NCBI GenBank assembly: GCA_003290165.1
Contig: QNQO01000512.1
Span: 124,001-188,000, forward strand
Direction of reading: 5' to 3'
DNA length: 64,000 nt
Source: Berberis thunbergii
Lineage: Eukaryota > Streptophyta > Magnoliopsida > Ranunculales > Berberidaceae
The notes under the pieces were generated by a model, which searched no databases, had not been told where the DNA came from, and saw only the letters and a program-made list of their open reading frames with translations. Both the position numbers and the translations under genes were made by a program. Below are positions 20,500 through 32,493 of this stretch, piece after piece. Positions within the stretch are counted from its first letter, which is position 1, and each line of letters begins with the position of its first letter.

Positions 20500-20512
20500 C
20501 ACTACACCAAAA

Positions 20513-20850
20513 GGCCAATTTAGCCACACCGAGATGGCCACGGTTCTAAACCGTGGGTTAAGTTGCCACGGCAAAAAATCGTGGCTATAATGACCAACGG
20601 CCTAAAACCGTGGCAAAAAAATGGCTACGGTTGAAAATCGTTGGTTTATTTGCTACGGCAAAAAACCGTGGCTATAATGACCAACGACTTAAAATCGTGG
20701 CTAAAACAATGGCAACGGCTCAAAACCATTGGTGTATTTGCCACGGCTAAAAACCGTGGCTATAATGACCAACGGCTTAAAATCGTGGCTAAAAAAATGG
20801 ACATGGCTCAAAACCGTGGCTATAATGAGGAACGGCTCAAAACATGTGTG
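20513..20850. repeat. Left subterminal palindromic repeat array of C
   Basis: About ten copies of a ~20-base motif of the type CAACGGCTTAAAACCGTGGC, spaced by short AT-rich linkers (TATAATGAC, AAAAAATGG). Many copies are imperfect palindromes. A larger ~97-bp unit containing two or three motifs is itself duplicated (near 20650 and 20748). Confidence 0.85.
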
Positions 20851-21289
20851 GAGAACGATTGGGTAATAGAAAACAGGTTTCCCTCTTTGGCGCAAGTTTC
20901 CCGCTTTGGCGAAAAAAATTGGGTAATAGAAAAGAGTTTGCGTGGTCATTTGGAGAACGATTTTTGACCTATTGCAGAGGAGAGATCGAGGAGCAGAGTC
21001 AGAGAGAGGTTTGGCGCAGAGGAGAGATCGAGGAGGAGAGAAAATCAGAGTCAGAGAGAGCTTGAAAATTTCACGGTTTGGTTTCGCCTCCTTCCATTTT
21101 CATTTTATGGTTCCATTTTCATTACTAATTTCACTTGAGAAAAATAAAAAAATTTATAACCTTCCCATGGAACTTTCAATTATTACAATGTTCCAGAGTG
21201 TTGTTCTTCACCCTTAAAATGGAAATTTGTTGATTCTTGTTGTCTGTAGACAATTTATTTAACTTAACATTGTGTGAATTGTGTTTTAG
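20851..21289 (+). other. GA-rich leader-like segment of C
   Basis: A duplicated TTGGGTAATAGAAAA motif (20858 and 20919) is followed by a purine-rich stretch with repeated GAGGAGAGATCGAGGAG (20978 and 21020). It resembles a plant 5' untranslated leader and could be where a transcript of the captured exons begins. No ORF of note. Confidence 0.35.
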
Positions 21290-21371
21290 GATACTTTTAG
21301 AGGAAAAGTGTGTGAATGCCCTATTGTGCAAGGCGTAAAGTTTGTAGGCAATGGTTATACCCATTGTGAAG
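21290..21371 (+). pseudogene. Vacuolar sorting receptor exon fragment
   Basis: An 82-bp exon with AG before and GT after encodes DTFRGKVCECPIVQGVKFVG followed by NGYTHCE. This is an invariant cysteine-rich segment just before the EGF-like repeats of plant vacuolar sorting receptors (BP80/VSR), which carry proteins from the Golgi to the vacuole. No stops. It is a single captured exon, so no functional receptor can come from it. Confidence 0.85.
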
Positions 21372-22795
21372 GTGAGTTTGGTTTGTGTTCGATTCCAGTA
21401 AAAATCATGCAATAGTAGGCAACACCTCTTAGATATGTTTCAGTTGATATTGAGATTTATTATTATTATACTCATTTGCTATATTGGAAAGTAATTGTAG
21501 TTTTAGAATGACTTGTACACTTGCAAACATGAAATAGTGTGCCTTTTGGTGATAAATGATGAGAAATGTGTTAATATTATAGTTGTAATGAGTTTTAAGA
21601 GCTCTTGCAAAAACTTCATGTTGCTCCATTCTAAATCTTGTCGTCCTCATCCTTGAAAATAATTGTGTTATACCAAATGATACAAAGGTCCAGTCCCCTA
21701 TCCTAAAAACTTGAATTCTGAATACCTATAAATTTTGAAAGTTATAATCCTTGCACCACATCTACAAACAATGGCTCCAGTCTGCTATCCTAAAAACTTG
21801 ATTATGAAAACTTATAAATTTTGAAGGTTATGATCCTTGTACTTATAAATAGATATGTTCTTTCTTTGTTCATATCTATTTTTAGTTAATGTGTTGTTTG
21901 GGAAGGCATGTAGGTTTTAAAACTACGACACTTACGTTAGTTGGCATATGGATCACTTGTAGTGCTCTAACCTGCAAACCCTATCATGAGTAACAATCTG
22001 ACTAGCTGAAACATAGTTTTGATTCAATTTTACGGTATTTTAGAAACAAAATTTTTTAAGTATCAGTGAATCATTGTCTTTAATATTCATTAGTGTGATA
22101 GGTGCACATGTTTCAAAGCCACTCTAGATGCTTTTTATCTCCTTTTAAGTGTTAATGATGCATTTAACACTTGTGTGTCATGTGCTTGTGCAGGTATTGT
22201 CCAAAAATGCATCATTAACACTTAAAATGGTGCAAACACATCCACATCACTTGCTTGCTGCTTAAAGGCCGATACGAAAGAATTGGGGCACTTGGTAGAT
22301 TGCGAAACCCTGTCCAAGTAAAGTAAATGTTGTCCCCAACTCTTAGAAACAGGTGCTTTTGTCTTTTGCATAAACTGGAGGCAATTGACAATAAAAGTTT
22401 CAGAAAGTGCTAATTTTTTCTCTTGGAAAGGTGTTTCTATTTTTATTTTTGCTTTTGATTAGATAGTAAAGTTCAATTTGGCTTGACACGAGTATATAAA
22501 AAAATAAAATTTGTTAGCATTGAAGTGGTGCTATCCAAAAAAAGAAAAAAAATGATATACAGCAACTACAAAAAAACAGCCTTGCTATTAAAATCATAAT
22601 CACAATTTTGTACAAGTTTTTCATTCATGCAACAATCACTATTGGCATTAGAATGATAGAGCATGTAATAACATTGCTATAGCTGAGTGGTCATGCATGT
22701 TGTGATCCTGTTTATTATTAATGATTGATTAGAGTTTTATGTTATACAAAACATGGTTGGATTTCACTGATTCTGGTTTTATGTTTGTAAAACAG
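21372..22795. other. Non-coding AT-rich part of C
   Basis: Intron-like sequence. A pair of related segments (near 21687-21745 and 21774-21830: CCAGTC-CTATCCTAAAAACTTGA) forms an ~85-bp imperfect duplication. Two segments around TGATGCATTTAACACTT (22155) and AAAATGCATCATTAACACTT (22202) are inverted relative to each other. No convincing exon. Confidence 0.45.
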
Positions 22796-23066
22796 GAATG
22801 GAATACTGCAGAGGAGGAATTCATGGCAAGATGGCGTTTATGGTACAACCTGCCCAATCCCTCCTGGCTGGAATTTTACTTACACTCTCCAGGTGAAGGA
22901 CCAGATTGGTAGCTTCTTCTACTACCCCTCTACTGCATTCCACAAGGCTGCAGGTGGCTTCGGAGGAATCAGAATTCTCAGCAGACCAAGAATTACTGTT
23001 CCATTCCCTGACCATGCTGGAGACTACACCATTCTCATCGGAGATTAGTACAAGGCTAATCACACG
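22796..23066 (+). pseudogene. SKU5-similar multicopper oxidase exon fragment
   Basis: Exon flanked by CAG and GTAAAC. It encodes NSWQDGVYGTTCPIPPGWNF, TYTLQVKDQIGSFFYYPSTA, FHKAAGGFGGIRI and ILIGD, then a stop where Trp is expected before YKANHT. This is the first cupredoxin domain of SKS/pectinesterase-like multicopper oxidases, GPI-anchored or secreted wall proteins. The type 2/3 copper-binding HWHG-type residues are degenerate in SKS proteins anyway. One nonsense change, otherwise intact. Confidence 0.85.
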
Positions 23067-31579: not shown

Positions 31580-31840
31580 GTTACTAAAGGGAGCAGGTTG
31601 CTATATGTTGCAGAGTGCTATGTTGTTGCATGTAGTGTTGTTTAGGAAAGATTTTTGTTAGATTAGTTGTCAATAAATGTAGTACTATAAATAAGAGAGC
31701 ATAAGAGAGAAAAAGAGATTCATTTGATTTGTAAGAAAATTGTACACTTGAGCATTTGCTCTACAGGAGATTAGCTATCTCGAATTAGCTTTCTTATTGA
31801 ATACAATCCATTCCATTTACTGTCGTCAATTCAGAATTAC
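31580..31840 (+). repeat. Possible copia/TRIM-type LTR fragment inside C
   Basis: The order is a TATA-like CTATAAATAAGAGAGC at 31686, a purine-rich GAGAGAAAAAGAGATTC, then TTGAATACAATCC near 31797. It resembles the promoter-R region of small copia-type LTRs. No partner LTR or target duplication was found. Confidence 0.3.
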
Positions 31841-31927
31841 AATTATAAGATCTTCAGTTTGTAATTTCTCTTCATTGCCTATATTGCATCACTGTCAGTA
31901 GAACTGCATTGGCTTAACACCATAACC

Positions 31928-32095
31928 AAAAAAAAATTAAAATTAATAATTAAAAATTAAAATATAAAAATTAAAAATTAAAAATTAAAAATTAAAAATT
32001 AAAAATTAAAAATTAAAAATTAAAAATTAAAAATTAAAAATTAAAAATTAAAATTAAAAATTAAAAATTAAAAATTTTAAAAAAAATAAAAAAAA
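31928..32095. repeat. (TTAAAAA)n microsatellite
   Basis: About twenty near-perfect copies of the heptamer TTAAAAA lie immediately inside the right subterminal array of C, with small variants at both ends. Confidence 0.92.
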
Positions 32096-32096
32096 T

Positions 32097-32477
32097 TTGC
32101 CACGGCTTAAAACCGTGGCTAATTATTGCAACGGCTAAAAACCGTGGCTACCTGGCCACGGCTTATAACCGTGGCTAGTATTGGCCACGGCTTAAAACCG
32201 TTGCTAAAGCTATTGCAACGGTTTAGAACTGTGGCAATAACTTGCAACGGTTTTAAGCCGTTGCTACTCCTGGCCATGGCTTAGAACTGTGGCTAAGATT
32301 GTTGCCACGGTTTATAATCATGGCTAAATCATCAACCGTCCTCTAGATAAAACCGTTGCTAATATTTTTGCCACGGTTTTTAGCCGTTACTGAGGATTTA
32401 GCGATGCCTCTACAGCCCACAGCTCTAAGCCGTGACAATGGGTCACCCCCACGGTTTAAAATCGTTGCAAAGGGTAT
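32097..32477. repeat. Right subterminal palindromic repeat array of C
   Basis: About ten copies of GCCACGGCTTAAAACCGTGGC-type palindromes, variants included (GCAACGG, CCGTTGC), separated by 3-10 bases. They run up to the terminal repeat at 32478. The same motif as the left array. Confidence 0.88.
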
Positions 32478-32493
32478 TTTTGGTGTAGTGAAT

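What the first reader, a model, noticed from the sequence alone, without database searches (positions are those of the whole stretch)
20500..32490. A 12-kb CACTA transposon that has collected exons from at least nine unrelated host genes
Seen: matched CACTACACCAAAA ends, AAT target duplication, subterminal palindrome arrays, and inside them recognisable exons of a vacuolar sorting receptor, SKS oxidase, PSMD5-like protein, DDM1, biotin carboxylase, beta-galactosidase, plastid signal peptidase, mevalonate diphosphate decarboxylase and a TGA factor, plus several unnamed exons. Gene-capturing CACTA elements are known, but a single copy holding this many independent captures is striking, and no transposase is visible.
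Basis: partly seen in the sequence, partly recalled or inferred. Interest (0 to 1): 0.9.

Follow-up and report, generated by a model that had tools for sequence, protein, structure and literature searches.

The report
Transposon carrying nine genes' exons
A 12-kb plant jumping gene of the CACTA type holds exons, with pieces of intron, that match nine unrelated plant genes, all facing the same way; it likely moves with an enzyme made by another element and could splice these pieces into mixed RNAs, an unusually full example of a known kind of gene-collecting transposon.

Summary
The finding holds. At 20500-32490 (11,991 bp) lies a bounded CACTA element: exact 13-bp inverted ends, AAT target duplication, and palindrome-unit arrays at both ends but not elsewhere in the window. 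All nine gene assignments find support: VSR, multicopper oxidase (SKS-like), PSMD5, DDM1, biotin carboxylase, beta-galactosidase, MVD and TGA/DOG1 clearly, signal peptidase modestly. Sixteen exons make 1,822 nt, 15% of the element. Of 34 boundaries of 17 exons, 29 sit at GT or AG with good flanking consensus; five are truncated or unplaced. Introns are present, so genomic DNA was captured. All nine genes lie on the + strand; Pfam and PDB scans find nothing in the three minus frames. No transposase domain was found. Stops and frameshifts, and a predicted chimeric ORF no longer than chance, speak against a chimeric protein. The kind is known (Tgm-Express1, Tpn1, Pack-CACTA); nine genes, against five in Tgm-Express1, and the common direction are the unusual points. 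Other copies, an autonomous partner and donor genes could not be sought: the genome search did not complete (ten tries).

The parts
20497..20499 (.). left target-site duplication AAT
   Evidence: sequence
20500..20512 (+). left terminal inverted repeat CACTACACCAAAA
20534..20843 (+). left subterminal array of palindromic units (29/88-bp period)
21290..21371 (+). vacuolar sorting receptor exon
   Evidence: PDB VSR1 6.4e-9; AG/GT sites
22796..23066 (+). multicopper oxidase (SKS-like) exon, one internal stop
   Evidence: Pfam Cu-oxidase_3; stop seen
24953..25090 (+). PSMD5 exon
   Evidence: 76% to Macleaya PSMD5
25932..26022 (+). unnamed exon-like stretch abutting DDM1; right edge approximate
   Evidence: open frame after an AG; no family found
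26022..26198 (+). DDM1 exon, no left splice site found, one frameshift; left edge approximate
   Evidence: PDB DDM1 in two frames
26262..26374 (+). DDM1 next exon, no right splice site found; right edge approximate
26396..26467 (+). biotin carboxylase exon
26595..26756 (+). beta-galactosidase exon (GHD domain)
   Evidence: Pfam GHD; PDB
27196..27263 (+). signal peptidase I exon a, apparently frameshifted near its end
27342..27410 (+). signal peptidase I exon b
27540..27640 (+). mevalonate diphosphate decarboxylase exon a; left edge is where homology ends
27750..27798 (+). mevalonate diphosphate decarboxylase exon b
28471..28595 (+). mevalonate diphosphate decarboxylase exon c
28735..28833 (+). 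mevalonate diphosphate decarboxylase exon d; homology ends about 28833
29253..29372 (+). unnamed exon-like stretch with both splice sites
   Evidence: no family found
30106..30183 (+). TGA bZIP factor exon, one internal stop
   Evidence: PDB TGA3/TGA7; stop seen
30282..30354 (+). TGA factor next exon (by context, weak on its own)
   Evidence: alignments reach 4 to 9 residues into it
30475..30619 (+). TGA factor DOG1-domain exon, frameshifted by eye; left edge approximate
   Evidence: Pfam DOG1
31932..32076 (+). (AAAAATT)n tandem repeat, 21 copies
32097..32470 (+). right subterminal array of palindromic units
32478..32490 (-). right terminal inverted repeat
32491..32493 (.). right target-site duplication AAT
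   Evidence: sequence

Best explanation
This is an 11,991-bp CACTA transposon in which no transposase was found, holding sixteen exons with intron pieces that match nine unrelated plant genes, all in one direction; it likely gathered them step by step as genomic DNA and would move by a transposase supplied in trans. Shown: ends, target duplication, arrays, exon identities, splice sites, common direction, no transposase domain. Inferred: TNPA/TNPD-type proteins of an autonomous partner bind the subterminal palindromes and ends; the pieces entered as double-stranded DNA during faulty repair or re-mobilisation of neighbouring copies; transcription along the + strand, from the left end or from a host gene around it, would be spliced into chimeric RNAs as in soybean Tgm-Express1. 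The recognised pieces match interior parts of their proteins, so a read-through transcript without captured gene ends is conceivable. The RNA is not expected to encode a chimeric protein.
For: Exact 13-bp inverted ends plus AAT duplication; palindrome units 3 and 5 at the two ends, none elsewhere. Nine gene families matched. Splice sites: for 17 exons (16 of named genes plus one unnamed) 15 of 17 donors and 14 of 17 acceptors could be placed, all at GT or AG; their mean consensus score was not reached in 10,000 draws from 673 other GT and 618 other AG of the interior. I placed the boundaries at the homology ends, which favours GT/AG itself but less so the flanking bases. Hits of six-frame Pfam and PDB scans lie in + frames only, 0 in all three minus frames. 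Intron sequence separates the exons of MVD, signal peptidase, DDM1 and TGA.
Against: No second copy, donor gene or autonomous partner could be looked for (genome search did not complete), so mobility and host origin are inferred. The interior holds no strict palindrome unit, which the published neighbour-fusion route might be expected to leave unless eroded. No RNA evidence. Three acceptor and two donor sides show no site, so some exons are cut. Nothing speaks for a selected chimeric protein: 311 of 2000 shuffled exon orders reach the observed longest open run of 151 aa.
Confidence: 0.87

Rival explanations
1. The fragments were assembled first by another kind of element (Helitron or Pack-MULE), whose cargo can also be mixed, and that composite later became enclosed by CACTA ends.
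For: Maize Helitrons are reported with zero to nine gene fragments (PMC3288121, passage); a common direction could follow from one assembling element.
Against: No Helitron-type 3' hairpin plus CTRR end on either strand under the criteria (exact 7-8 bp stems only); among the 25 longest of 112 inverted pairs and the self-comparison no second long terminal-repeat pair; the outer ends are CACTA with a 3-bp duplication.
Confidence: 0.07
2. Two or more neighbouring CACTA elements fused repeatedly and enclosed gene pieces (the Pack-CACTA fusion model), so that the number of capture events is below nine or differs from the number of genes.
For: Model published for Pack-TYPE elements (PMC8903248 section 9). 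Two TIR-like sites with 2 mismatches lie in the interior, one of them (27477) between the signal peptidase and MVD pieces; such sites are commoner in the whole window (9 besides the ends) than in shuffles (2.6).
Against: 0 strict palindrome units in the interior. The TIR-like sites are about as dense outside the element (7 in 52 kb) as inside (2 in 12 kb), so they do not mark fusion points in particular.
Confidence: 0.3
3. Mosaic of decayed pseudogenes or an assembly chimera that happens to sit between CACTA-like ends.
For: The window holds retrotransposon remnants, and raw reads were not available.
Against: Ends, target duplication and arrays agree on the same limits; all recognised pieces share one direction.
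Confidence: 0.03

Closest known systems
Tgm-Express1 (soybean wp allele, CACTA; PMC1947982: abstract, passages, sections 5 and 8 seen)
   Same: CACTA element with exon and intron fragments of unrelated host genes and canonical GT/AG sites; some host transcripts contain all its cassette exons
   Different: 5.7 kb and five genes, against 12 kb and nine genes here; RNA shown there, not here; it sits in a known gene intron
Tpn1 family (Ipomoea nil; PMC5105172: passages seen)
   Same: non-autonomous members keep TIRs and tandem subterminal repeats, have mostly 3-bp AT-rich duplications, and their internal sequences are replaced by captured host sequences; 339 copies averaging 7.1 kb
   Different: 28-bp TIR and 122/104-bp subterminal repeats; the number of genes per copy was not given in the passages seen
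Pack-CACTA / Pack-TYPE elements (PMC8903248 passages and section 9; review PMC13317346 abstract and section 4)
   Same: non-autonomous TIR elements carrying coding DNA
   Different: the worked examples in section 9 carry one or two short gene pieces; the fusion route proposed there left no clear trace here
Wheat chromosome 3B CACTA captures (PMC4290129: passages seen)
   Same: CACTA-mediated capture of genes and gene fragments
   Different: 140 capture events involving 145 genes, so about one gene per event
Maize Helitrons (PMC3288121: passages seen)
   Same: multi-gene capture, zero to nine fragments per element
   Different: no TIR and no target duplication (recalled); no Helitron 3' end found here

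Membership tests
CACTA superfamily | terminal inverted repeats beginning CACTA | tested here: met
   13-bp exact ends
CACTA superfamily | 3-bp target-site duplication | tested here: met
   AAT on both sides
CACTA superfamily | subterminal arrays of short direct and inverted repeats | tested here: met
CACTA superfamily | TNPA/TNPD transposase, in autonomous members only | tested here: not met
   no transposase domain in six frames; not required of non-autonomous members, so it marks this copy as non-autonomous
Pack-CACTA (gene-capturing non-autonomous CACTA) | gene fragments between CACTA ends | tested here: met
   nine gene families
Pack-CACTA (gene-capturing non-autonomous CACTA) | DNA-level capture with introns | tested here: met
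   retained introns and GT/AG sites at 29 of 34 boundaries
Pack-CACTA (gene-capturing non-autonomous CACTA) | sister copies sharing ends, with other cargo, and an autonomous partner | not tested
   genome search unanswered ten times; no copy inside the window
Pack-CACTA (gene-capturing non-autonomous CACTA) | donor genes present in the same genome | not tested
Helitron | 3' hairpin followed by CTRR, no target duplication (recalled definition) | tested here: not met
   no site; duplication present
Pack-MULE | long TIRs and 9-bp duplication (recalled definition) | tested here: not met
   13-bp TIR, 3-bp duplication

The most novel reading that the evidence does not exclude
The element is a one-way exon train: capture or retention is tied to transcription direction, so that only sense-facing internal exons with working splice sites accumulate. 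That would make some CACTA families systematic builders of spliceable multi-gene RNAs rather than random collectors, with antisense captures of essential genes weeded out.
Probability: 0.25. Interest if true: 0.68.

Novelty: new member of a known kind. Interest (0 to 1): 0.45.

Why it matters
Exon shuffling by DNA transposons is an old idea, and elements holding many genes are few in what I could read. A single copy with nine partners, working-looking splice sites and one common direction gives a clean case for asking how captures accumulate, whether direction is selected, and whether such RNAs are made. It also warns annotators that the exons of nine genes here are not genes.

Tried and rejected
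Chimeric protein under selection: rejected; the longest stop-free run in a predicted RNA of 13 pieces (MVD exons a and d and TGA exon c left out for want of a site) is 151 aa, and 311 of 2000 shuffled exon orders reach it. SKS and TGA exons carry stops; DDM1, signal peptidase (apparent) and the last TGA exon (by eye) are frameshifted.

Helitron assembly: no 3' end under the criteria. Nested LTR near 31.6-31.9 kb (suspected by eye): no TG..CA pair with an exact 5-bp duplication. Second copy in the window: blastn of the element against the rest gave no hit at E 0.01. Array motif elsewhere: 0 viral contigs; 22 prokaryotic contigs with one match each, taken as unrelated palindromes and not followed.

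Naming the two remaining exon-like stretches: nothing convincing in Pfam, PDB (best E 0.39 and 0.57), NCBIfam or the protein database. Six further open stretches from between the fragments gave no Pfam family; but DDM1's second exon and MVD's exon b, in the same call, gave none either, so short exons can be missed and more cargo, on either strand, may be present.

Host identity: the three best of six PSMD5 hits and six of the seven best MVD hits, the seventh being unnamed, are Ranunculales (order checked for seven species). But over all four MVD exons the best match is an unnamed protein (84.6%), Catharanthus equals Aquilegia (80.6%), and a tree of 34 rows chosen from 108 proteins does not place the captured sequence. 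Not settled beyond flowering plant, probably eudicot.

Orientation caveat: seven of the nine genes were found by scans run equally on both strands (7 of 7 on +, two-sided p 0.016, worked out by hand); PSMD5 and signal peptidase were found from + strand exons only; 9 of 9 gives 0.0039. Both assume independent captures.

Literature: nine searches. Papers were seen as abstract, passages or named sections as stated, none whole; PMC8978399 and PMC2773423 were seen as passages only. Zabala and Vodkin 2005 and Catoni 2019 are not held; Kawasaki and Nitasaka 2004 and Li 2009 were seen only as citations. A CACTA element with as many captures may therefore be in print.
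Full report
What is there. The sequence between 20500 and 32490 is a single bounded CACTA element of 11,991 bp. Both ends are the 13-mer CACTACACCAAAA in inverted orientation, the only two exact matches in 64 kb; AAT stands directly outside both. Within about 400 bp of each end lie arrays of palindromic units of the type CCACGG..AA..CCGTGG with periods near 29 and 88 bp. A strict form of the unit occurs 3 times in the left 400 bp, 5 times in the right 400 bp, and not at all in the interior, the rest of the window or 20 simulated windows. 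By analogy with En/Spm, where TnpA binds the subterminal repeats and TnpD the ends (stated in a passage of PMC5105172), this is what a transposase would recognise.

The cargo. All six frames were scanned against Pfam and PDB sequences. The + frames gave vacuolar sorting receptor, multicopper oxidase, DDM1 in two frames, that is with a frameshift, and in two exons, biotin carboxylase, beta-galactosidase, MVD and a DOG1 domain. Separate queries added the TGA bZIP exon, signal peptidase I (modest scores) and PSMD5 (76% over 46 aa). One search listed 108 proteins at E up to 0.1, all with an MVD domain; none was found for the second unnamed exon, which lay in the same query. MVD is present as four successive exons separated by introns. 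In all, sixteen exons and 1,822 nt belong to the nine named genes, 15% of the element (some edges approximate). The three minus frames gave no Pfam family and no PDB hit at E 0.1. No transposase domain appears in any frame.

DNA-level capture. For the sixteen named exons and one unnamed exon there are 34 boundaries. Twenty-nine could be placed, 15 donors at GT and 14 acceptors at AG, and their neighbouring bases fit the consensus much better than the other 673 GT and 618 AG of the interior (0 of 10,000 draws as good). Five could not: the left side of the first DDM1 exon, of the first MVD exon and of the last TGA exon, and the right side of the second DDM1 exon and of the last MVD exon. So breakpoints fall in introns mostly, but in some cases apparently inside coding sequence; DDM1 adjoins the unnamed stretch directly on its left and ends within about 20 bp of the biotin carboxylase exon on its right. 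Since introns are present, the fragments were taken as genomic DNA, not as processed RNA. The recognised pieces match interior parts of their homologues, for example residues 364-409 of 525 in PSMD5 and 255-378 of 419 in MVD.

State of the cargo. The SKS-like and TGA exons carry in-frame stops; DDM1, signal peptidase (apparent) and the last TGA exon (by eye) are frameshifted. A predicted RNA of 13 exon pieces has a longest open run of 151 aa, reached by 311 of 2000 random exon orders. A chimeric protein is therefore not indicated. A chimeric RNA is plausible, because Tgm-Express1, which is built alike, is spliced into its host transcript, some transcripts containing all its cassette exons (PMC1947982 section 5).

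Direction. All nine genes face the same way. By the scans run equally on both strands the count is seven of seven (two-sided p 0.016, by hand); with the two found only from + strand queries it is nine of nine (0.0039). This assumes independence, which neighbour fusion or multi-gene capture would break. Tgm-Express1's five fragments, being spliced together in one transcript, should also face one way (my inference). Against a general rule: two copies of the grapevine family Cactavine-5 carry a PPR gene fragment in the opposite orientation to the transposase (PMC2528002).

How it arose and works. The most likely course is repeated DNA-level capture into one non-autonomous family member, followed by transposition with enzymes from an autonomous partner. 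The published fusion model (PMC8903248 section 9) might be expected to leave internal array or TIR remnants. No strict array unit is seen in the interior. Two TIR-like sites with 2 mismatches are there, one between the signal peptidase and MVD pieces; but such sites are as dense outside the element (7 in 52 kb) as inside (2 in 12 kb), although the window as a whole has more of them (9 besides the ends) than shuffles (2.6). Filler capture during gap repair fits breakpoints inside exons equally well. This cannot be decided from one copy.

Setting. Ty3-type gag and reverse transcriptase domains occur elsewhere in the window. No family was found in the 3 kb left of the element (six frames) or the 3 kb right of it (three + frames only). 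The host is a flowering plant, probably a eudicot; best hits lean to Ranunculales, but a tree of the MVD exons does not settle it.

Novelty. Gene-carrying CACTA elements are well known; [quoted passage not shown] The largest count I saw for one CACTA copy was five (Tgm-Express1), and zero to nine for maize Helitrons. Nine named genes, and up to eleven with the two unnamed stretches, is thus at the top of what I could see, but key papers were not held. I rate it a new, unusually loaded member of a known kind.

Noticed in passing
window 22143-22227: A perfect 23-bp inverted repeat with a 39-bp loop inside the element, perhaps a MITE remnant or a small hairpin.
   Followed up: no
window 21682-21842: An 86-bp imperfect tandem duplication between the VSR and SKS pieces.
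   Followed up: no
window 31932-32076: An (AAAAATT) repeat of 21 copies directly inside the right subterminal array.
   Followed up: no
window, nine places besides the element ends: Sites within 2 mismatches of the TIR 13-mer are commoner than in shuffles (9 against 2.6), the closest at 14186 (+) with 1 mismatch; no strict array unit lies outside the element.
   Followed up: partly
window 41407-42069 and 50358-51245: Ty3-type gag on + and reverse transcriptase/RNase H on -, remnants of LTR retrotransposons.
   Followed up: partly
window 2588-2950: Minus-strand open frame that by eye resembles a non-LTR reverse transcriptase (translation; recalled motif, not searched).
   Followed up: no
window 54218-54325: Match to plant snoRNA snoR71 just above the Rfam gathering score (40.7 against 40), opposite an open frame on the minus strand (53958-54362); may be chance.
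   Followed up: no
window 34110-34432, 44807-45288, 59400-59859: Tandem arrays of 70-, 128- and 78-bp units.
   Followed up: no
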